Part shown: positions 23,803-61,183 of the stretch, piece after piece | Position numbering within the stretch: position 1 is the stretch's first letter | How the letters are laid out: each line of letters starts with the position of its first letter | Origin: a virus | Virus record (IMG/VR): IMGVR_UViG_3300043470_000217 | Span: 61,558-125,557 of that record | Strand: one strand, 5' to 3' | DNA: 64,000 nucleotides | Notes under the pieces: model-generated | What the model saw: the letters and a program-made list of their open reading frames with translations, nothing else | The model's database searches: none | Told to the model about the DNA's origin: nothing | Program-made: the position numbers and the translations under genes

Positions 23803-23878
23803 ATGTGGTTTTTTAGTTGATTGTTTAATAAAAAAAGTCCTGGAAGCAGATCTTACGGTATGCAACCAGGAACATTTG

Positions 23879-23972
23879 TAACAGAGACAGGATTTGAACC
23901 TGTGTAAAGTTTACAAGCTTTAACTACCACATTCATTAGTGGTATGCGTTATACCTATTCCGCCACTCTGTT
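23879..23972 (-). tRNA. tRNA, long variable arm, irregular anticodon arm
   Basis: A 94-nt cloverleaf. Acceptor AACAGAG pairs with CTCTGTT, the T-arm is ACAGG-TTCAAAT-CCTGT and the variable arm TAAAG...CTTTA is long, so it is a Leu/Ser/Tyr-type tRNA; the D-arm (GCGGAATAGGTA..CGC) is Leu-like. The anticodon arm is odd: TACCAC/GTGGTA pairs over 6 bp around the 8-nt loop TAATGAAT, so the isotype is not assigned. No CCA is encoded. Confidence 0.7.
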
Positions 23973-24029
23973 ATTTTGCTGTCTTTCCAGCAGTCAACCA
24001 GTGTTCATTTAAAATGCTCTTGGCTTTCG

Positions 24030-24122
24030 TAGTCAGGACAGGACTCGAACCTGTAAGCTTTTTGCCTTAACAAAGGTATCGGACAGAGAATCCAAAAGCG
24101 TCTACCATTCCGCCACCTGACT
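24030..24122 (-). tRNA. tRNA, long variable arm, isotype uncertain
   Basis: A 93-nt cloverleaf: acceptor AGTCAGG/CCTGACT, Leu-like D-arm GCGGAATGGTAGACGC, T-arm ACAGG-TTCGAGT-CCTGT and a 24-25-nt variable arm. The best anticodon stem is TTGGA/TCCGA with loop TTCTCTG (apparent CTC), which is not a standard Leu anticodon and lacks the usual purine at position 37. Confidence 0.7.
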
Positions 24123-26113: not shown

Positions 26114-26590
26114 TTAACTCATTAAAGGGTTTGCTTGTTTTATTAGTTTATGAAAGTTCTCTAAGAATTCTTCTGCAATTTTCTTAGATTGAAATGAAAG
26201 AAACTTATGAGTAGTGTACCAAACATCTACTATAACTTTATCTTTATGAAAATTTACACACCATTTAGTACTTTTTTCATCATTCCAATCAGGAACCCAT
26301 CCTTGACGGTAAACTTCACGTAGTTGTGATAACTGAGCAAATGCAAGACATGCATTAGCTTGTCTCTCTGTTACAAACATGTTTCTATTATCAATGTATG
26401 TTTTTGTATCCCTTTCATATTCAATATGACAACAGTCACCAACAAAATAGCCAGATATATTTTCTAATTCTCCCCAATTCTTAGGAAGATTAGATTCAAT
26501 CTTTTTAAATGCAACAAGCCCTTTTGTCAAGTCACTGTTCTTTTGGTCAATTTCATAACCATCTGGGATTTCAATATTAAATGTTTTCAT
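26114..26590 (-). CDS. conserved hypothetical phage protein
   Basis: A 158-residue protein starting NIEIPDGYEID with KNWGELENISGYFV, AQLSQLREVYRQGWVPDW and FLSFQSKKIAEEFLENFHKLI. This is a common family in Bacteroidota phages and prophages with no known function. An AAAACCCTAAAA leader precedes it. Confidence 0.8.
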   Translation of the reverse strand: MKTFNIEIPDGYEIDQKNSDLTKGLVAFKKIESNLPKNWGELENISGYFVGDCCHIEYERDTKTYIDNRNMFVTERQANACLAFAQLSQLREVYRQGWVPDWNDEKSTKWCVNFHKDKVIVDVWYTTHKFLSFQSKKIAEEFLENFHKLIKQANPLMS

Positions 26591-26616
26591 AGTTTTAGGG
26601 TTTTAAGATTAATAAA

Positions 26617-26823
26617 AAAACAAACTCTCCTGCATGATCACCATGCTTTTGGATTTTACTGAACATAGTTTACTGTTCACCTGATTACTTAAAGTGCGCA
26701 CTGGCAGAGCAGGGTCCATCACATTATACCTTGGGTCATGATTACTTAATCGGGTAATTACTCCCATAAAGCCAAGGTCTCTTTCAACGGTGCTAATCCG
26801 TCTTATGTAAGAGAGTTTGTTTT
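26617..26823 (-). ncRNA. structured RNA candidate abutting tRNA-Leu
   Basis: No credible gene is present. The ends pair over 13 bp without mismatch (AAAACAAACTCTC at 26617-26629 with GAGAGTTTGTTTT at 26811-26823). Inside are ACGG/CCGT with a 7-nt loop (26787-26801), ACCTTGG/CCAAGGT (26728-26734 with 26772-26778), AGTGCGCACT (26693-26702), TGAACA/TGTTCA (26660-26679) and GCATG/CATGC (26632-26646). On the minus strand the last stem runs into U7, as at a terminator. The 5' end begins 1 nt after tRNA-Leu, so both may be cut from one transcript. Confidence 0.55.
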
Positions 26824-26824
26824 G

Positions 26825-26910
26825 TACTACTAGTGGGAATCGAACCCACACTGACATTGCTGTCAACAGGATTTTAAGTCCTGCGCGTCTACCTATTCCG
26901 CCATAGTAGT
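26825..26910 (-). tRNA. tRNA-Leu (anticodon TAA)
   Basis: A regular 86-nt class II tRNA: acceptor ACTACTA/TAGTAGT, D-arm GCGGAATAGGTAGACGC, anticodon arm CAGGA-CTTAAAA-TCCTG giving UAA at 34-36, variable arm TTGACAGCAATGTCAG and T-arm GTGGG-TTCGATT-CCCAC. Discriminator A; CCA not encoded. It would read UUA, the commonest Leu codon in this AT-rich genome. Confidence 0.93.
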
Positions 26911-34795: not shown

Positions 34796-34956
34796 TGAAC
34801 TGGTACATAAGTACTACAGCAATGGAAAATATTACAGTTAATGTAACTTACGTTAGCTATTATTCTGATGAAGATGATGATACCATTGAGATGAGTTTAG
34901 ATGAATTAATAGAACAACCTAATACAACAATTACAGACTATGGCTTATCTTTATAG
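34795..34956 (+). CDS. small acidic protein, 53 aa
   Basis: Starts at the TAATG junction with terL and ends 17 bp inside the GIY-YIG gene. MNWYISTTAM.. then SDEDDDTIEMSLDELIEQ, strongly acidic. It may be native to the terL-portal gap or have come with the endonuclease. Unknown function. Confidence 0.6.
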   Translation: MNWYISTTAMENITVNVTYVSYYSDEDDDTIEMSLDELIEQPNTTITDYGLSL

Positions 34957-35482
34957 ACATATTAGATTAGATAAAAATGAGCCTTTTTATATAGGAATAG
35001 GTAGTGATGCTCAATATAAAAGAGCTAACTCTATTAATCCTAGAACTAAACATTGGAAAAATATTATTTCTAAAACAGCTTATAGAATAGACATTGTATT
35101 TGATGATTTAACTTGGGAAGAAGCTTGTGAAAAAGAAAGAGAATTTATTTCTATGTACAAAAGAAAATGTGATGGTGGAATTTTATGTAATTTAACCCTT
35201 GGTGGTGAAGGTGCATATGGTAGAATTTTATCAGAAGAAAGTAAAAATAAAATTTCTAAAAAAGTATCTGGTATAAATCACGGGATGTATGGAAAATCTC
35301 ATACTGAAGCTGCAAAAAATAAAATTGTAGAAGCTGCATCAAAAAGTGTAATTAATACAGAAACTAATGAGATATTTACATCTATAAAAAATGCTGCTAT
35401 CAGTATAAACATAAGACCTAATACATTAACACGAAAACTTTCCGGTATTAGACATAATGATACAGTTTTTAAATTAATTTAA
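34940..35482 (+). CDS. GIY-YIG homing endonuclease
   Basis: A 180-residue protein. The catalytic start is LYRHI...FYIGIG (4-21), followed by an E-rich helix, then a NUMOD3 repeat (SGINHGMYGKSHTEAAK) and a NUMOD1-type DNA-binding end (SIKNAAISINIRPNTLTRKLSG). It is free-standing between terL and portal. It is clearly richer in A+T than both, a mark of a mobile gene that cuts related phage genomes lacking it. Confidence 0.9.
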   Translation: MAYLYRHIRLDKNEPFYIGIGSDAQYKRANSINPRTKHWKNIISKTAYRIDIVFDDLTWEEACEKEREFISMYKRKCDGGILCNLTLGGEGAYGRILSEESKNKISKKVSGINHGMYGKSHTEAAKNKIVEAASKSVINTETNEIFTSIKNAAISINIRPNTLTRKLSGIRHNDTVFKLI

Positions 35483-39602: not shown

Positions 39603-41222
39603 ATGGCAACTCCAGTTTTAAACAATGGTATATTTCTGCGTGATACCAGCTACCAAGCTAGTTCTCACGTAGATTCATACCACCTCGTAAACATGCTGAA
39701 AAGCAGTGAACCTATGGATTTAGGTCCAGTAGACATTTGGGCTATGGCTCAAAAGGTTGAAATGCCTTTGTACCAGTTCTCTAGCTTTGGTGGCAAGAAC
39801 ATCATCAATGTAGACAACGCTCGTGGAGAGTACAAGTGGCAGGTTCCTGTTGCTCAAGATCTTCCTTACGTTGTAACTGACATTGATTCTACTAACACTA
39901 CTAAGGGTATTGATGGTACTACTTTCCAAGTAAAATTAAACAAGCGTATTTTTGGACATGGTGACATCGTTACTTATGACAAGTACAATGGTTTGGAAAT
40001 GTACATCACTGCTGATGACATTATCCCTACTGGTGATGGTTTCATCTACACTGTTCAATTGGTAAACAACAGCAATGGTGTTTCTTTGGACAATAAGTAC
40101 TTGGCTTCTGGTACTAAAATGTTCCGTAAAGGTTCTGCTCGTGGTGAATACGGTGAGCGTTTCTCTGATATCGGACACTATGGTGCTGGTTTCCGTGAAT
40201 TCTACAACTACGTAGGTGGTGCAGAAGCTCACGTACACTATTCAATTTCTAGCCGTGCTGACTTGATGTTGAAGGGTGGTTTGAACGCAGATGGTACTAT
40301 TCCTGTAACTGAAATCTGGCGTAACTTTGACAAGACTATGGATCCTTCTGTAACTAGCTTGGAGTCTATGGTACAAACTATGGGTAAAGATGCAGTTAAG
40401 CGTGCGTTTGACAATGGTAACTTGACCCGTACTTTCTTGACTACAATGGAAGCAGCTCACTTGACTAAAGTAGCTAATGACATTGAGACCTACTTGATGT
40501 GGGGACAAGGTGGTAAGATTAAGCAAGATGGTCCAGATGATATCCGCTTATCAGTGGGTCTTTGGAAGCAGTTGGATAACAGCTTTAAGCGTGTATACAA
40601 CAAGTCTAGCTTCAACTTGGATTTGTTCAAGTCTGAAATCTATAACTTCTACTTGGGTAAGGTTGACTTCCAAGGTCCAGATCCTAAGCGTCAGTTGATT
40701 GTTCAAACTGGTATGGGTGGTATGAAGTTGGTTAACGAAGCAATTAAGAAAGAGGCTATCCAGTCTGGTATGATCATCAATGCTCAAGAAATTGGTGCTA
40801 TTACTGGTAAGGGAATGGACTTGAACTTTGGATTTGCTTACACCAGCTATGTAATTCCTTTCTTGGCTAACGTTAAGTTTGTATTGAACCCTGCATTTGA
40901 CAACTTGCACACTAACGATATTGAAAACCCCTTGATTGATGGTTTCCCATTGTCTTCTTACAACTACATCATTTTTGATATCACTGATAACACTAATGAT
41001 AACATCTTCATGTTGAAATTGTCTTGGGACAATCAATTGAAGTGGTTCTACCAAAATGGTACTATGGATTACATGGGACGTACTCAAGGCTTCCAAAGCT
41101 CTGGTCAGTTCAATGGATACCGTGTATACATGAGCCAAACAATGCCTGCGATCTGGGTGAAGGACCCAACGAAAGTTCTCAAAATTGTGATGAGAAACCC
41201 AATCACCGGAGGAAGCTTTTGA
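39603..41222 (+). CDS. major capsid protein
   Basis: A 539-residue protein directly after the assembly gene. Codon choice is strongly biased (TTG for Leu, CGT for Arg, GGT, AAC), unlike the TTA/AGA use of nearby genes, as expected for the most abundant virion protein. The leader is a long A/C-rich run (AACAACACAAACAACAC) suited to high translation in Bacteroidota. The fold is presumed HK97-like. An insertion-rich N-terminal part and a conserved C-terminus (MRNPITGGSF) are seen. Confidence 0.85.
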   Translation: MATPVLNNGIFLRDTSYQASSHVDSYHLVNMLKSSEPMDLGPVDIWAMAQKVEMPLYQFSSFGGKNIINVDNARGEYKWQVPVAQDLPYVVTDIDSTNTTKGIDGTTFQVKLNKRIFGHGDIVTYDKYNGLEMYITADDIIPTGDGFIYTVQLVNNSNGVSLDNKYLASGTKMFRKGSARGEYGERFSDIGHYGAGFREFYNYVGGAEAHVHYSISSRADLMLKGGLNADGTIPVTEIWRNFDKTMDPSVTSLESMVQTMGKDAVKRAFDNGNLTRTFLTTMEAAHLTKVANDIETYLMWGQGGKIKQDGPDDIRLSVGLWKQLDNSFKRVYNKSSFNLDLFKSEIYNFYLGKVDFQGPDPKRQLIVQTGMGGMKLVNEAIKKEAIQSGMIINAQEIGAITGKGMDLNFGFAYTSYVIPFLANVKFVLNPAFDNLHTNDIENPLIDGFPLSSYNYIIFDITDNTNDNIFMLKLSWDNQLKWFYQNGTMDYMGRTQGFQSSGQFNGYRVYMSQTMPAIWVKDPTKVLKIVMRNPITGGSF

Positions 41223-41353: not shown

Positions 41354-42148
41354 ATGAGAAAGTTAAATTTAGAAGAACCTAGAGTTCAACAGGCAGTTGA
41401 TCTTTACAAGTCAGGTCTTGCAATAAGACCAATATGCAAAGAATTAAATATGGATGGTGAGGCTCTTAGTAATGTTCTTAAACAGTTAGGTATTTACAGG
41501 AGTAGATCTCAAGCTATCCGAAATGGAAAAGGGCATGGTCAAATTAATGATCATGCCTTTTCTATTTTAACCCCGGAAGCATTGTACTGGATAGGTTATT
41601 TATTTGCTGATGGGCATATAGAAAAATCTAGGCCCCGGATTACAATTACCACCACTAAAGAAGATGAGGAGCAAATGATTAATTTTGCTAAGTATGTAAA
41701 TGCTAATGTTACATATCTTAAAAATGATTATATCCGGGTTGCATTTACAAGCCAAGAGATATATGATAAATTAGTTAGTTTAAATTTTAATAATAGAAAG
41801 AGTTATGAAATAGTTGTACATCCCCTACTCAAGTACTCTAGAGACTTCTGGAGAGGTTGTGTAGATGGAGATGGTTGGGTGTTTAAAACCAAGTATCCGG
41901 TTATAGGATTATGTGGGTTACAAAACACAATACAAGGCTTTATAGAGTTTCTAAACCTTAATGCTATAGATACTAAACAAGTACCTAATAAAGTAAAGAA
42001 GAGGGAGAGTTTGTATAAATGTGATTTTAAATGTAAAAAAGCAATTGCTATTACAGATTTACTATACAAAGACTCTACTGTATACCTACAACGTAAATAT
42101 GATACTTACCGGGACTTTTTAAATTTTTCAGAAGAAGAACTAGTTTGA
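41354..42148 (+). CDS. LAGLIDADG homing endonuclease
   Basis: A 264-residue protein with an N-terminal HTH (RVQQAVDLYKSGLAIRPICKEL) and two LAGLIDADG motifs: ALYWIGYLFADGHI (about 75-88) and DFWRGCVDGDGWV (about 159-171), whose Asp residues cut DNA. It is free-standing between the capsid gene and a fibre gene, with its own TATCTTTG element (41342-41349) four bases from the ATG. Very A+T-rich; signs of mobility. Confidence 0.9.
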   Translation: MRKLNLEEPRVQQAVDLYKSGLAIRPICKELNMDGEALSNVLKQLGIYRSRSQAIRNGKGHGQINDHAFSILTPEALYWIGYLFADGHIEKSRPRITITTTKEDEEQMINFAKYVNANVTYLKNDYIRVAFTSQEIYDKLVSLNFNNRKSYEIVVHPLLKYSRDFWRGCVDGDGWVFKTKYPVIGLCGLQNTIQGFIEFLNLNAIDTKQVPNKVKKRESLYKCDFKCKKAIAITDLLYKDSTVYLQRKYDTYRDFLNFSEEELV

Positions 42149-42192: not shown

Positions 42193-44901
42193 ATGCCTTT
42201 AGAAAGATTCATACCCAAATCACCTGATATGTTTATTAGAAACAGTCAGGATTTTGAAGTTGCCAAATTTGGGCATCTTAATGCCATTGTTGAATATATC
42301 AATAACAATTCTGGTGGTTTAAAATTATCCGGTAATGGTTTTATATCTGTTACAGTAAAAACTGTACTAGATCCTGCTGGAAATACTACACCATTAAGAA
42401 TGTCTAGTTCTTCTATTACCAATTATGGTGGAGGATCTATTGATACTAATACAGCATTTGGTGCTAGTGCATTAGGTAGAAACTCAACAGGAGCTAATAA
42501 TACAGCTTTTGGTCTATCTGCTATTTATAATAATACAACCGGAAATAATAATACTGGTGTTGGTTATTTATCATTAGCATTTAATAATGGTTCTAATAAC
42601 GTAGCGCTTGGTTATCGTGCTCTAACTACTAACACAAGTGGCGCAGATAATATAGCCATTGGAGTTGATGCTGCTTATTCTGCTACTACAGGTAACCAAA
42701 GAGTTGCTATTGGTACAGAAGCATTATACTCAGCTACCACAACTTCACAACAAGTTGCTATTGGACATCAATCAGCAAAGTTTGTAGTTAGTAGTTCTTT
42801 GGTTGCTATTGGAGCTTATTCTGCTAATGTTGCGGTTAACGTTGTTTCATCAATAGTTATTGGCTATGCAGCAATGGGTAACAGTTCTTCTGCATCTACC
42901 GTTGATAGTGCTACTATTATAGGATACCAAGCAGGTCGTTATATGGAAGGTGGTCAGTATAATACTGCAATAGGTCATGTTGCTATGAGTGGTTCTACTA
43001 CCTTAAAAAATACAGGGGGTAGAAATACTGCTATTGGATGGTCTGCCCTAAGATTTAATACGACAGGTGCAAATAATACCGCTATAGGAGCAATTGCTAA
43101 TCAATTTAATACAACAGGTATTCAGAATGTCTCTATAGGAGATAGTTCTTTAGTACAAAACACTACTGGATCAAATAACGTAGCAGTTGGTGTTTTAGCA
43201 ATAAACTTAAATTCTACTGGAAGTAACAACGTTGCTGTGGGTACTAGTGCTTTACAATCTAATACAGCATCTAACAATACTGCTATGGGGTATCAAGCAG
43301 GGTTTAGTAATACTAGTGGGATTGGCTTGACAGCGTTAGGATATGCCGCAGGTAGAGGTAACACCACAGGAACTGAAAATACTGCTGTAGGATATAACGT
43401 ATTGCTAAATAATAGCACAGGGAGTTATAATAGTGGAGTAGGTTATGGGGCGTTATTAGGAACAACAGGAAATAGTAATACTGCTGTTGGCAATGGTGCA
43501 GGTTTTCAAGTAACTACAGGTTCGGGTAATACCATTATGGGGCATAACGCACTTAACGTAGGTGGTTCTGCTTCAAACAATACTGCATTAGGTTATTACG
43601 CATTATTTTCCAACATCGCCTCTAACAATACTGCTGTCGGCTATCAAGCAGGGTTTAGCAATACAAGTGGTTTTGCAAACGTTGCAGTTGGTTATTTAAC
43701 ATTTTATTCAAATACTACAGGTAGTTGGAACGCAGCTGTAGGTCAACAAGCGTTAACTTCTAATAGTACTGGAACTGCTAATAGTGCTTTTGGATATCGT
43801 GCTTCTACATCAAACACAACAGGACAAAGTAATGTAGCAATTGGTTACGCTGCATTACATAGTAATAGTACTGGTAACAATAATACAATAGTTGGTACAT
43901 CTTCTATGTATTTAGGTGCAGGTTCTAATATTACAGCAGTTGGTACGTCAGCTTTATATCAAAATACTGGAAACAATAATACTGCAGTTGGTTTTGAAGC
44001 AGGTTATAGTAATACGAGTGGGGGTGCTTTAACTGCTTTAGGTTATGAAGCAGCTCGTAATAATACAACAGGCGCAGATATTACTGCCGTGGGCTATCAA
44101 GCCTTAAGAGCGAATACAACAGGTAGTTATAATACTGCTATTGGTGTACTTGCTCTTTCAGGAAATACAACAGGTGGTGCTAACACAAGTATTGGTGAGT
44201 TATCTTTAACTGCAAACACTACAGGTGGAAATAACGTAGCGGCAGGTTTTCAAGCAGCATATAATAATACGAGTGGTTCTTATAGTGTTATTTATGGTAT
44301 GGGTGCTGCATATTCAAATACAACAGGTTCTGAGAATACTATTATTGGACCACAAGCGGCATATTTTAACGTAACTGGAGGACAAAATGTTGCAGTAGGG
44401 CATACTGCACTATATAATAATACATCTAGTGGAAATACAGCAGTGGGTTATAAAGCAGCAAGAGGAAGTACAACTGGAATACAATTGACCGCAATTGGTA
44501 ATGGTGCGCTACAAAATTTAACCACAGGTGGAGCTAATACTGCTTTAGGTTATGTTGCTTTAAATGCTAATACAACAGGTTCATACAATATAGGTATAGG
44601 TAGTTCTGCACTTCAATCTAATACAACTGGTTCTGTAAATGTAGCTGTTGGTCATGGTGCAGGAAGTGATAATACAACGGGAGGAGATAATACAATAGTA
44701 GGACATGGTGCAAATACAGGTAATTTTAGTGGTTCTATTATTTTAGGAAAAGGCGCAACAGCAACTGCGGCAAACCAATTTGTAGTAGGTGCTGTAGGAA
44801 CACCCGCAGGTACTATAGATACAGCAGCAGTAACTCCTACACAAAGATGGAAAGTAAAAATTAATGGTGTAGACTACTATATTGCTTTACAACCAGCTTA
44901 A
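42193..44901 (+). CDS. giant repeat tail fibre / adhesin (902 aa)
   Basis: Residues 1-42 are the shared attachment module (LERFIPKSPDMF.. VAKFGHLNAIVEYIN). About 75-830 consist of some 45 imperfect repeats of 15-17 residues with consensus NNTAxGxxALxxNTTG, the TMF / YadA-head type of trimeric beta-roll. The C-terminal 70 residues (ANQFVVGA.. RWKVKINGVDYYIAL) form a cap shared with the 1,230-residue fibre at 57491. It should be a long fibrous receptor-binding protein. The repeats are recombination-prone. Confidence 0.85.
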   Translation: MPLERFIPKSPDMFIRNSQDFEVAKFGHLNAIVEYINNNSGGLKLSGNGFISVTVKTVLDPAGNTTPLRMSSSSITNYGGGSIDTNTAFGASALGRNSTGANNTAFGLSAIYNNTTGNNNTGVGYLSLAFNNGSNNVALGYRALTTNTSGADNIAIGVDAAYSATTGNQRVAIGTEALYSATTTSQQVAIGHQSAKFVVSSSLVAIGAYSANVAVNVVSSIVIGYAAMGNSSSASTVDSATIIGYQAGRYMEGGQYNTAIGHVAMSGSTTLKNTGGRNTAIGWSALRFNTTGANNTAIGAIANQFNTTGIQNVSIGDSSLVQNTTGSNNVAVGVLAINLNSTGSNNVAVGTSALQSNTASNNTAMGYQAGFSNTSGIGLTALGYAAGRGNTTGTENTAVGYNVLLNNSTGSYNSGVGYGALLGTTGNSNTAVGNGAGFQVTTGSGNTIMGHNALNVGGSASNNTALGYYALFSNIASNNTAVGYQAGFSNTSGFANVAVGYLTFYSNTTGSWNAAVGQQALTSNSTGTANSAFGYRASTSNTTGQSNVAIGYAALHSNSTGNNNTIVGTSSMYLGAGSNITAVGTSALYQNTGNNNTAVGFEAGYSNTSGGALTALGYEAARNNTTGADITAVGYQALRANTTGSYNTAIGVLALSGNTTGGANTSIGELSLTANTTGGNNVAAGFQAAYNNTSGSYSVIYGMGAAYSNTTGSENTIIGPQAAYFNVTGGQNVAVGHTALYNNTSSGNTAVGYKAARGSTTGIQLTAIGNGALQNLTTGGANTALGYVALNANTTGSYNIGIGSSALQSNTTGSVNVAVGHGAGSDNTTGGDNTIVGHGANTGNFSGSIILGKGATATAANQFVVGAVGTPAGTIDTAAVTPTQRWKVKINGVDYYIALQPA

Positions 44902-57291: not shown

Positions 57292-57494
57292 AGTTTGCTG
57301 AAGCTATTTACACACAATTTAAAAGAATGAAATACGGCATTGCAACATGCTGTGATGAAAATTGGGAACTAGATATCTACAACAAAGAGTTGTGTGATAT
57401 GAATGCCCTATTACAACCTAACCTTTTAGGTAATTCAGTAATTATCCCTGACAACTACCTCTTACTAGAGGATGGTAATAGAATCTTGATATGA
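57240..57494 (+). CDS. small Cys-rich protein
   Basis: An 84-residue protein: CSSCYNC at 4-10, CC at 37-38, then an LLGNSVIIPDNYLLL strand pair. Overlaps the zinc-ribbon gene by 52 bp and the giant fibre gene by 4 bp. Unknown. Confidence 0.65.
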   Translation: MEACSSCYNCGSESTNVKFAEAIYTQFKRMKYGIATCCDENWELDIYNKELCDMNALLQPNLLGNSVIIPDNYLLLEDGNRILI

Positions 57495-60400
57495 GCAGTT
57501 CAATAACCCAATTAAACGCATTACTCCCAGGAGGTGTAAATGGAGAGTATGATGTAATCCCTATTGTATCAGTAGGAGAAATAGCCCCTGATGGTTCTAT
57601 GGGAGTAACCCGTAAAATCACTGTAGAAAACTTAGCATACGTAATAGGATCCAGTGTTAATCCGGAGATTATTATGGATACTGTTGCAGCTCATACAGTA
57701 GGAGGAACCGGTATTGCTATAGTATATGATGATCTAAATGATCTTCTTACTATCTCTAATACATATACACCTCCGGTTGGGTTATTAAAAGTAGATAATC
57801 CATTATCTAGCACATTACAATTTGTAAAGGATGGTGCTAATACAAGTTCTGCATTACAGATATCCACTACTTCAGTTACAAATACTGGAGCTGGTAACGT
57901 TGCTACAAACACGGCATTTGGTGATAATGCGTTGATTAATAATACAACGGGTCAAGGCAATACCGCTAATGGCTTTCAAGCGTTGATTAATAACACTACG
58001 GGGAATGTCAATACAGCTATTGGTAGAAATGCCTTGCAAAACAACACCACCGGACCCAACAATACTGCTATCGGGGTGAATGCGTTACTTTCCAACACCA
58101 CAGGTAGTGCCAACACCGCTTTGGGGGTACAAGCGTTACAATTTAATACGGGTAGTGGCAACACGGCTAACGGGTTTAAATCCTTATTCAACAATACTAC
58201 GGGTAGTTTCAACACCGCAGTAGGTTTTGAAGCAGGCTTGAGTAACACATCTGCAACCAACAACTCTTTTGTAGGATATCGTGCAGGTAGTACAAATACC
58301 ACTGGTGGTGGAAACACCGCTGTTGGTACTGATTCAATGAGGTTGAACTCAACAGGAACGGGTAACACTGCTTTGGGTTATTTGGCTATGGAGAACAACA
58401 CCAATAGCAATAATACGGCATTGGGTTATAGATCTCTTAGAGCTAATACAAGTGGTAGTTTAAATACTGCAGTAGGTGTAGATGCTTTGTTAAGTAATAC
58501 TACAGGTACAAGTAACGTAGGTGTTGGTTATCAGGCGTTAAATACGAATATAACGGGTATCAACAATACTGCATTAGGTACTCAATCTTTGTTCACTAAC
58601 GATACAGGCTCAAGGAATGTTGCAGTAGGTAGGCAAACTATGTATTACAACACAAGTGGTGAAAGAAATACGGCAGTTGGTATTTCTGCGATGGGTAGCA
58701 ATACAACAGGTTCTTACAATACTGCTATGGGTGAGTGGGCTTTACAGTCAAATACTACAGGGGGCAATAATACAGCCATTGGTCGTGAAGCGTTAAAACA
58801 AAATGTTATAGGTAGTAACAATGTTGCTTTAGGATTTGGTGCTTTATTGTTTAACACCGCAGACAACAACACCGCAGTAGGGTATGAGGCAGGGTATAGT
58901 AATGCCGCAGGTGTAGAAGTAACCGCAATGGGATATGGTGCATTAAGAACAAGTACGGGAGGGTACAATGATGCGTTTGGATATTCTGCTGGATATAATG
59001 TTTCTACGGGTGTAGCAAATACTTTAATTGGAAGTCTTTCGGGATTGAGCACTACAACAGGGAATTACAACATTGGAATTGGTAGAGGTACTTTGTATTC
59101 TAACGTATCGGGAAATTCTAATGTAGCAATAGGTAAAGATTGTTTATTTAACAATACCGCCTCCAACAACACCGCAGTCGGGTTTCAAGCAGGGTATAGT
59201 AATACAAGTGGGCAAGTTACTGCGTTAGGATATTTGGCATTGAATAGCAATACTACAGGTGCAGAAAATACAGCAGTAGGTAGTAATTCTTTGCAATCTA
59301 ATACTACAGGCTCAGGCAATACTGCTATGGGATATGGTACGTTGCAATCTAATACTACAGGTGTTTACAATAATGGTTTTGGTCTTTTTGCTTTAAGGCT
59401 AAATAATACAGGTTCTCGTAATCATGCTTTTGGATTTTACTCTTTGCTAAACAATACTACGGGAAATGATAACGTATCTATAGGTTATTTCTCAATGTTA
59501 ACCAATGTCAGTGGAAGTAGTAATGTAGCGATAGGCAATAATACATTGCAAAATAATACCGCATCCAATAACACAGCAATAGGGCATCAAGCAGGAAATA
59601 GTAATACGAGTGGGGAAAATATAGTATCTGTTGGTTATCAAGCGCTACAATCTAACACTACAGGTAGCTATAATATTGCTATGGGTGTACAAGCATTACG
59701 CTCAAACACTACAGGTACAAACAATGTAGCTATTGGTACTTTGGCATCTTATCAGAGTTTAACAGCGAGCAATAACGTAGCCATTGGTCATATTACATTA
59801 GGTGCAAACCAAGGTAATTCAAACGTTGCAATTGGTTCACAAGCAGGGGCAAATAATACTACAGGTGGAGGAAATACTTTTATAGGTGCTGATGCTTCTC
59901 AATTTAACACTACAGGAAATTACAACGTATCTTTAGGTAACGGTGCTTTACAAACAAACGCAACAGGTTCAAGCAATACAGCATTAGGTTGGACAGCACT
60001 ACGTTTCAACACCGCCTCCAACAATGTAGCAGTAGGATTCCAAGCAGCGTATAGTAATACGAGTGGAACTAATAATACGGCATTGGGTTATACAGCATCG
60101 TATTCAAACACTACAAGTAGTTCTAATACATCAGTAGGATTTCAAGCATTATATGCTAACATAGGAGCAAATAATACCGCTATTGGTGATAGGGTATTAG
60201 TAAATACAACAACAGGAACTGCAAATACTGCTATTGGATCACTTTCAATGAGGTTAAATGTAGATGGTAGCACTAACGTTTCCATAGGCGTAAGTTCTTT
60301 GTATTCAAATATTTCAGGTAGTAATAACATTGCATTAGGATATCAATCATTATTTAACAATATCGCCTCCAATAACGTAGCAGTCGGATATCAGGCAGGA

Positions 60401-61183
60401 TTTACTAATACCAGTGGAACAGAAATAACAGCAATTGGTAATCAAGCATTGTATAATTCAACAGGAAGTTCCAATACTGCAGTAGGAACAATAGCCCTAT
60501 ATACAAATACAACAGGTATTCAAAACACAGCGTTAGGAAGAGCGGCATTACAAACAAATTCAACGGGTAGTACTAATACAGCAGTTGGCTACAACGCATT
60601 ATTTTCAAATTCAACAGGAAGTTCCAATACCGCAATAGGTTGGCGTTCATTAAATTCCAATAATGCTTCCGGCAATACCGCAGTAGGTTATGAAGCAGGG
60701 TTTAATAATACGAATGGTGAAATAACAGCAGTTGGATGGAAATCGTTATACTCAAATACATCAGGTCTTTACAATACAGCAGTAGGTCAACAAGCATTAG
60801 AAAAAAATACCACAGGTAATAATTTAACTGCTTTTGGTAATTTTACATTAGGTAAAAATACTACAGGAACTCAAAATTCTGCTTTTGGTCAAGGTGCCTT
60901 ATCAGAAAATTTAACAGGTGGATTTAATGTTGCTGTTGGACAAGGTGCTGGAAATACTAATACTACAGGTAGTGGTAATACAATGATTGGACATAGTGCT
61001 AATTCAGGTAATTTTGATAATAGCGTAATTATTGGTCGTAATGCAACCGCAACAGGAAGTAATCAATTTGTAGTAGGTACTGCTGCTCAAAACGCAGGTA
61101 CTGTAACAACAGAAGCAAATACTTCTACTAAGGTTTGGAATGTTAAGATTAATGGTGTAGACTATAAAATATTATTAGCATAA
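57491..61183 (+). CDS. giant repeat tail fibre / adhesin (1,230 aa)
   Basis: N-terminal 120 residues differ from the other fibres (TQLNALLPGGVNGEYDVIPI ... GTGIAIVYDDLNDLLTISNTY). About 130-1160 hold some 60 repeats with consensus NNTAxGxxALxxNTTG. A special unit, xASNNTAVGxQAGYSNTSG, recurs at intervals of 6 to 9 units. The C-terminal cap (NQFVVGT.. WNVKINGVDYKIL) matches that of the 902-residue fibre. A trimeric beta-roll stalk is expected; the different N-terminus suggests a different attachment site. Confidence 0.85.
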   Translation: MSSSITQLNALLPGGVNGEYDVIPIVSVGEIAPDGSMGVTRKITVENLAYVIGSSVNPEIIMDTVAAHTVGGTGIAIVYDDLNDLLTISNTYTPPVGLLKVDNPLSSTLQFVKDGANTSSALQISTTSVTNTGAGNVATNTAFGDNALINNTTGQGNTANGFQALINNTTGNVNTAIGRNALQNNTTGPNNTAIGVNALLSNTTGSANTALGVQALQFNTGSGNTANGFKSLFNNTTGSFNTAVGFEAGLSNTSATNNSFVGYRAGSTNTTGGGNTAVGTDSMRLNSTGTGNTALGYLAMENNTNSNNTALGYRSLRANTSGSLNTAVGVDALLSNTTGTSNVGVGYQALNTNITGINNTALGTQSLFTNDTGSRNVAVGRQTMYYNTSGERNTAVGISAMGSNTTGSYNTAMGEWALQSNTTGGNNTAIGREALKQNVIGSNNVALGFGALLFNTADNNTAVGYEAGYSNAAGVEVTAMGYGALRTSTGGYNDAFGYSAGYNVSTGVANTLIGSLSGLSTTTGNYNIGIGRGTLYSNVSGNSNVAIGKDCLFNNTASNNTAVGFQAGYSNTSGQVTALGYLALNSNTTGAENTAVGSNSLQSNTTGSGNTAMGYGTLQSNTTGVYNNGFGLFALRLNNTGSRNHAFGFYSLLNNTTGNDNVSIGYFSMLTNVSGSSNVAIGNNTLQNNTASNNTAIGHQAGNSNTSGENIVSVGYQALQSNTTGSYNIAMGVQALRSNTTGTNNVAIGTLASYQSLTASNNVAIGHITLGANQGNSNVAIGSQAGANNTTGGGNTFIGADASQFNTTGNYNVSLGNGALQTNATGSSNTALGWTALRFNTASNNVAVGFQAAYSNTSGTNNTALGYTASYSNTTSSSNTSVGFQALYANIGANNTAIGDRVLVNTTTGTANTAIGSLSMRLNVDGSTNVSIGVSSLYSNISGSNNIALGYQSLFNNIASNNVAVGYQAGFTNTSGTEITAIGNQALYNSTGSSNTAVGTIALYTNTTGIQNTALGRAALQTNSTGSTNTAVGYNALFSNSTGSSNTAIGWRSLNSNNASGNTAVGYEAGFNNTNGEITAVGWKSLYSNTSGLYNTAVGQQALEKNTTGNNLTAFGNFTLGKNTTGTQNSAFGQGALSENLTGGFNVAVGQGAGNTNTTGSGNTMIGHSANSGNFDNSVIIGRNATATGSNQFVVGTAAQNAGTVTTEANTSTKVWNVKINGVDYKILLA

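What the first reader, a model, noticed from the sequence alone, without database searches (positions are those of the whole stretch)
26617..26823. Highly structured 207-nt RNA candidate fused to tRNA-Leu
A perfect 13-bp closing helix, five internal helices and a U7 end, with no gene inside, is far more order than expected by chance. It starts 1 nt past the tRNA, so tRNA processing would free its 5' end. Closed-end RNAs with internal bulges recall 6S-type RNAs that bind RNA polymerase, but I see no proof of that family.
Basis: partly seen in the sequence, partly recalled or inferred. Interest (0 to 1): 0.75.

Follow-up and report, generated by a model that had tools for sequence, protein, structure and literature searches.

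The report
Phage tRNA-linked RNA with self-pairing tip
A bacterial virus carries, directly after a transfer-RNA gene, a conserved folded RNA of about 200 bases that belongs to a little-known RNA family; one of its loops keeps changing yet always stays able to pair with a copy of itself, which suggests that the RNA works as a pair.

Summary
On the minus strand, directly after tRNA-Leu, lies a conserved RNA of about 200 nt. About 120 viral contigs encode homologues. Seven helices are supported by covariation: 34 of 42 pairs show two-sided compensatory change, and 97.4% of cells pair against 78.1% after shuffling. It is not a 6S RNA. Its core matches Rfam freshwater-1 (RF02979) below the gathering score (53.2 vs 72 bits), while full-length homologues pass that score. 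So the 62-nt Rfam model is only the core of a larger RNA.

New here: (i) full-length architecture; (ii) one copy per genome in crAss-like and T4-like phages; (iii) 73 of 85 loci start within -4 to +6 nt of a tRNA end (12 anticodons; random control 3.9%), and about half also run straight into a next tRNA; (iv) hairpin P5a has a self-complementary tip (GUGCAC, UGGCCA, GUCGAC or GCGC-centred), with at least 14 changes on the tree; 23 of 25 unique versions keep a palindrome of 6 nt or more. That is the published covariation signature of homodimer kissing loops in OLE and GOLLD.

Best reading: a stable phage RNA cut out of tRNA transcripts that dimerises. Dimerisation and processing are inferred; its role in infection is unknown.

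The parts
26617..26823 (-). Full-length freshwater-1-type RNA, 207 nt
   Evidence: covariance model R1, 202.9 bits, E 3.8e-52
26824..26910 (-). tRNA-Leu (UAA) immediately upstream (5') of the RNA
   Evidence: ARAGORN; Rfam tRNA 63.4 bits
26810..26823 (-). P1 closing helix, 5' strand (A-rich)
   Evidence: pairs with 26617-26630; 10 of 11 modelled pairs show compensatory change
26617..26630 (-). P1 closing helix, 3' strand (U-rich)
26805..26809 (-). P2 5' strand (UACAU), pairs with 26720-26724
26720..26724 (-). P2 3' strand
26786..26802 (-). P3 hairpin GACGG-AUUAGCA-CCGUU
   Evidence: covariation in 4 of 5 pairs
26729..26777 (-). P4 arm CCUUGG...CCAAGG with distal hairpin
   Evidence: covariation in 6 of 6 pairs
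26754..26761 (-). P4 distal tip GUAAUUAC; palindromic in some but not all homologues, so not claimed as a dimer contact
26680..26713 (-). P5 (CCUG/CAGG, invariant) enclosing hairpin P5a
   Evidence: invariant in 75 sequences, so no covariation test is possible
26693..26702 (-). P5a tip AGUGCGCACU: 10-nt self-complementary sequence, proposed self-dimer contact
   Evidence: palindromic in 23 of 25 unique versions; GUGCAC, UGGCCA, GCGC and GUCGAC alternate on the tree
26660..26679 (-). P6 hairpin UGAACA-GUAAACUA-UGUUCA
   Evidence: covariation in 6 of 6 pairs
26632..26646 (-). P7 hairpin GCAUG-GUGAU-CAUGC
   Evidence: covariation in 5 of 5 pairs
26654..26723 (-). Part covered by the 62-nt Rfam freshwater-1 model
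   Evidence: cmscan 53.2 bits, gathering 72, E 2.7e-11
26706..26717 (-). Invariant core GGACCCUGCUCU (invariant in A1, whose members were found with this core as query; a few later homologues vary in it)
26614..26620 (-). U7 run at the 3' end of P1; could act as an intrinsic terminator here
   Evidence: sequence

Best explanation
This is a phage-encoded, trans-acting, stable non-coding RNA of the freshwater-1 family in its full-length form. Shown here: the conserved seven-helix fold, the tRNA-abutting position, the one-copy-per-genome spread across two unrelated phage groups, and a P5a tip that stays self-complementary through repeated sequence switches. Inferred: it is made as part of a tRNA transcript, its 5' end is freed by tRNA 3' processing (and its 3' end by RNase P cleavage of the next tRNA, or by the U-run terminator in this window), it folds, and two copies dimerise by tip-to-tip pairing of P5a. 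The dimer then acts in trans during infection, in the manner of the tRNA-island RNAs GOLLD and ROOL, whose function is also unknown. The molecular target is not established.
For: Fold: 34 of 42 pairs with compensatory change, covariation score 0.530 vs 0.184 shuffled and at most 0.071 when slid. Homologues: 89 + 24 + 10 model matches, including the window genome, in about 120 viral contigs; one copy in each contig of a 43-contig test (in one contig the RNA is split in two pieces at the contig end). Context: 73 of 85 unique loci abut a tRNA 3' end, 12 anticodons, control 3.9%; 44 of 82 have a tRNA within 60 nt downstream, most within 8 nt. Breadth: Crass_capsid in 11 of 43 contigs and in the window, T4-type Gp23 in 22 of the other 32. 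Dimer contact: 23 of 25 unique P5a segments hold a palindrome of 6 nt or more, vs a mean of 4.7 (max 12) when shuffled; the other hairpin loops P3, P6 and P7 have none. Four perfect palindromic tips; 14 changes of tip type on a tree built without P5a, and supported branches force at least 6 for UGGCCA. In most versions the 3-bp stem is itself compensated, in many different sequences. Further loci found without the tip in the query also carry GUGCAC or UGGCCA. The same signature, palindromic tetranucleotides switching in a loop, supported homodimer kissing loops seen by cryo-EM in OLE and GOLLD (PMC12286853).
Against: No transcript, processing or dimer data. Two P5a versions keep only a 4-nt palindrome (L119 GGUACAC; L121 GUGCAU, self-complementary if G-U counts). 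A hairpin stem is palindromic by itself, so part of the excess over the shuffled control is expected; the weight lies on the tip letters alone. Recombination of the hairpin as a unit could inflate the count of switches. In the window the usual outer 3-bp P5a stem is lost and the tip is GCGC in an AGU/ACU stem, so pairing there would rest on 4 loop bases or an extended 10-bp duplex. GOLLD and ROOL are larger (RF02032 alone is 416 positions), and no cage is implied by a single contact.
Confidence: 0.6

Rival explanations
1. It is a monomeric structured RNA (RNP scaffold or protein decoy); the P5a tip is palindromic because it binds a symmetric protein or pairs with a varying target, not because the RNA dimerises.
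For: Invariant single-stranded stretches (GGACCCUGCUCU, UGAAAG) look like protein or RNA contact sites.
Against: Four different perfect palindromes are used and exchanged many times; a fixed protein site would conserve letters rather than symmetry. GOLLD copies in the same islands, a plausible partner, do not contain these tip hexamers.
Confidence: 0.22
2. It is a cis-acting element: a transcription terminator, antiterminator or leader of the downstream gene.
For: In the window the helix ends in U7 and an ORF of 158 aa starts 27 nt further on.
Against: 44 of 82 loci have a tRNA, not an ORF, next downstream; many homologues lack a U-run beyond the closing helix; the internal fold is far more conserved than a terminator needs.
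Confidence: 0.1
3. It is a small mobile DNA element (MITE-like) that inserts at tRNA 3' ends, with the closing helix as terminal inverted repeats.
For: Precise abutment to 12 tRNA types; different neighbours around similar copies, e.g. tRNA-Glu in L031 and tRNA-Leu in the window before the same downstream ORF.
Against: The closing-helix sequence differs from locus to locus while staying complementary, unlike transposase-recognised ends; internal helices covary; one copy per genome.
Confidence: 0.06
4. It is an antisense RNA to the tail-fibre-like gene 57491-61183, because 19 nt match exactly.
For: 19-nt exact match of 26642-26660 within the genome, E 9.7e-4.
Against: The stretch is the conserved UAAAAUC segment plus half of hairpin P7; P7 changes by compensation in other phages.
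Confidence: 0.02

Closest known systems
freshwater-1 RNA (Rfam RF02979)
   Same: Same core: GGACCCUGCUCU, P5 (CCUG/CAGG), the P6 hairpin and the following UAAAA. Homologues aligned full-length with the window pass the Rfam gathering score.
   Different: The Rfam model has 62 positions and lacks P1, P2, P3, P4 and P7. The window itself scores below gathering, with a longer P5a.
GOLLD RNA (RF02032)
   Same: Phage RNA of unknown function in tRNA islands; symmetric kissing loop with palindromic covariation (PMC12286853). Found about 2 kb from the freshwater-1-type RNA in 6 of 29 loci scanned.
   Different: Much larger, unrelated sequence and fold; forms a multi-chain nanocage. No shared tip hexamer.
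ROOL RNA
   Same: Phage and prophage RNA near tRNA islands, RNA-only oligomer (PMC12286853).
   Different: Different sequence and fold; no ROOL match in the window or among the listed matches of the scanned loci (the lowest rows of 57 and 77 were not listed).
OLE RNA, loop L9.3
   Same: Homodimer contact supported by palindromic tetranucleotides switching GGCC to GAUC or AGCU (PMC12286853), the same logic as P5a here.
   Different: Large bacterial RNA of extremophiles, not reported as tRNA-linked in that paper.
T4 RNA species 1 and 2 (from memory)
   Same: Small stable RNAs of unknown function made inside a phage tRNA cluster and matured by tRNA processing.
   Different: Recalled only; no sequence comparison was made.
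6S RNA
   Same: Stable RNA of about 200 nt with a closing stem.
   Different: No Rfam match; multi-branched rather than rod-like fold.

Membership tests
freshwater-1 (RF02979) | Rfam gathering score of 72 bits | tested here: not met
   Window 53.2 bits, E 2.7e-11 in 701 nt. Full-length homologues L005, L010, L011, L013, L022, L026, L049, L070, L094, L103, L113 and others do meet it.
freshwater-1 (RF02979) | Full-length homology to sequences above the gathering score | tested here: met
   One covariance model aligns all end to end; window 202.9 bits, L005 214.7, L011 192.1.
freshwater-1 (RF02979) | Core GGACCCUGCUCU, P5 and P6 hairpin | tested here: met
   Alignments
6S RNA | Match to Rfam 6S models | tested here: not met
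   None at E up to 10
6S RNA | Long rod with a central open bubble mimicking a promoter | tested here: not met
   Covarying fold is a multi-branched junction
GOLLD / ROOL-like self-assembling tRNA-island RNAs (works like) | Encoded in phage tRNA islands | tested here: met
   73 of 85 loci abut a tRNA
GOLLD / ROOL-like self-assembling tRNA-island RNAs (works like) | Homo-oligomer through kissing loops | tested here: inconclusive
GOLLD / ROOL (membership) | Match to the Rfam GOLLD or ROOL model | tested here: not met
   only tRNA and freshwater-1 among credible matches
Intrinsic terminator | Short GC-rich stem followed by a U-run in all homologues | tested here: not met
   AU-rich P1; U-run beyond P1 missing in many homologues
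T4 RNA species 1 and 2 | Sequence or fold relationship | not tested
   Recalled from memory only

The most novel reading that the evidence does not exclude
Freshwater-1 is a compact, tRNA-excised phage RNA that works as a homodimer (or larger assembly) through an evolving self-recognition loop. It would be a third, much smaller class of self-assembling tRNA-island RNA beside GOLLD and ROOL, shared between crAss-like and T4-like phages. The repeated switching between GUGCAC and UGGCCA would act as a self/non-self code that keeps RNAs of different phages from pairing with each other.
Probability: 0.4. Interest if true: 0.8.

Novelty: new variant of a known kind. Interest (0 to 1): 0.6.

Why it matters
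It turns an orphan 62-nt Rfam motif into a complete RNA of about 200 nt with known carriers (crAss-like and T4-like phages), a defined genomic position (fused to tRNAs) and a testable mechanical prediction (self-dimerisation through one loop). At about 200 nt it is far easier to make and study than GOLLD or ROOL, so it could open the question of what self-assembling RNAs in phage tRNA islands do.

Tried and rejected
1. 6S RNA: no Rfam match and wrong architecture. 2. Antisense to the tail-fibre gene through a 19-nt exact match: the stretch belongs to conserved, covarying P7; judged chance. 3. P4 distal tip (GUAAUUAC/GUAGCUAC) as a second dimer contact: other homologues carry GUCGCAAC, GUUGCUAC or GUAUCUAC, which are not palindromic, and the shuffled control can reach the observed count. 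4. Hetero-pairing with GOLLD in the same islands: the tip hexamers do not occur in GOLLD. 6. Named phages: no blastn match in INPHARED or PLSDB; none in Leptolyngbya phage Lbo-JY46, phi4:1, phi17:2 or cr116_1 with the model. 7. The first description of freshwater-1 (Weinberg et al. 2017) is not held, and full-text searches for the name or accession found nothing.

Full report
WHAT IS THERE. The RNA is on the minus strand, 26823 to 26617, directly after tRNA-Leu(UAA). Folding energy alone is a weak argument (z -2.63), and the minimum-energy fold of the single sequence is not the conserved fold.

FAMILY. Rfam at default thresholds gives only tRNAs. With relaxed thresholds the core, 26723-26654, matches RF02979 freshwater-1 at 53.2 bits against a gathering score of 72. 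A scan of viral contigs with the core pattern gave 101 stretches. 54 unique full-length versions were aligned (A1), and a covariance model R1 was built. R1 finds 89, 24 and 10 matches in the fetched viral loci, the window included. As a control, 99 loci from bacterial genomes that hold the same pattern by chance give no match. Several full-length homologues reach the Rfam gathering score, up to 86 bits. The Rfam model is therefore the core of a larger RNA, and the window RNA is a divergent relative: its P5a is longer, which probably explains its low Rfam score.

STRUCTURE. Seven helices: P1 (ends), P2, P3, P4, P5, P6, P7. On 75 distinct sequences 34 of 42 pairs show changes on both sides that keep pairing; 97.4% of cells pair against 78.1% shuffled and 33-41% slid. 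That alignment was fitted to the model, which leans towards the structure, but the independent MAFFT alignment A1 gave 30 of 42 such pairs. P5 is invariant and so untested.

CONTEXT. Among 86 unique loci, 85 have enough sequence upstream; 73 of these have a tRNA ending -4 to +6 nt from the RNA start. The upstream tRNAs carry 12 anticodons. Random intervals in the same loci give 3.9%. In 44 of 82 a tRNA follows within 60 nt, most within 8 nt. So the RNA often sits exactly between two tRNAs, where tRNA maturation would cut both its ends; that processing step is inference. One copy per genome in the 43 contigs tested. Eleven of these have a Crassvirus capsid protein, as the window does; 22 of the other 32 have the T4-type Gp23 capsid. 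No cellular carrier was found in 396 Bacteroidota genomes, and none in named phages or plasmids by blastn.

SELF-COMPLEMENTARY TIP. Hairpin P5a, inside P5, usually has a 3-bp stem of very variable but compensated sequence and a 6-7-nt loop. The loop is GUGCAC in most, UGGCCA in 13 of 75 aligned rows, GUCGAC in one, and a GCGC-centred palindrome in two, the window among them. A tree made without P5a needs at least 14 changes of tip type; well-supported branches alone force 6 or more for UGGCCA. 23 of 25 unique segments contain a palindrome of 6 nt or more, against a mean of 4.7 after shuffling; hairpins P3, P6 and P7 have none. Nine further loci, found with queries that leave the tip free, also carry GUGCAC or UGGCCA. 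The cryo-EM study PMC12286853 used the same signature in OLE and GOLLD, where adjacent loop bases covary as palindromes and cannot pair within one chain, as evidence for symmetric kissing loops. The most direct reading is homodimerisation. Limits: two versions keep only 4 perfect bases, hairpin recombination could inflate the number of switches, and no biophysical test was possible.

MECHANISM. Shown: fold, position, spread, tip symmetry. Inferred: excision from tRNA transcripts, dimerisation, action in trans. The closest working analogues are GOLLD and ROOL, phage RNAs in tRNA islands that assemble into RNA-only oligomers. GOLLD even lies about 2 kb away in the same island in 6 of 29 loci scanned but does not share the tip sequences, so the two probably assemble separately. 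What the dimer does for the phage is not known.

NOVELTY. The family name exists, so this is not a new kind from nothing. The full-length form, the phage carriers, the tRNA fusion and the dimer signature were not found in any text available here. The founding paper could not be read, so prior notice of some of this cannot be excluded.

Noticed in passing
L010:7072-7506(-), L030:6014-6428, L055:3357-3791, L056:4079-4509, L082:7043-7477, L087:3589-4019: GOLLD RNA lies in the same phage tRNA island as the freshwater-1-type RNA, about 2 kb away.
   Followed up: partly
L026:7375-7771, L117:3495-3875: tmRNA genes in the tRNA islands of phage contigs that carry this RNA.
   Followed up: no
window 39603-41222: Major capsid protein matches Crass_capsid; best named relative is Leptolyngbya phage Lbo-JY46 at 28% identity over 99%, a phage reported from a cyanobacterium, which is odd for a crAss-like capsid.
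   Followed up: partly
window 23878-23972, 24029-24122: Two odd tRNA-like genes: one with a four-base anticodon call (atga), one tRNA-Glu of 94 nt.
   Followed up: no
window 34940-35482 and 41354-42148: ORFs inserted between terminase and portal genes and after the capsid gene look by eye like GIY-YIG and other homing endonucleases; not searched.
   Followed up: no
window 57491-61183, also 42193-44901: Long virion or tail-spike proteins made of many NTAxG-type repeats (for the first).
   Followed up: no
L031 vs window 26114-26910: Similar RNA and same downstream ORF but a different upstream tRNA (Glu instead of Leu): the tRNA-RNA border behaves like a recombination joint.
   Followed up: partly
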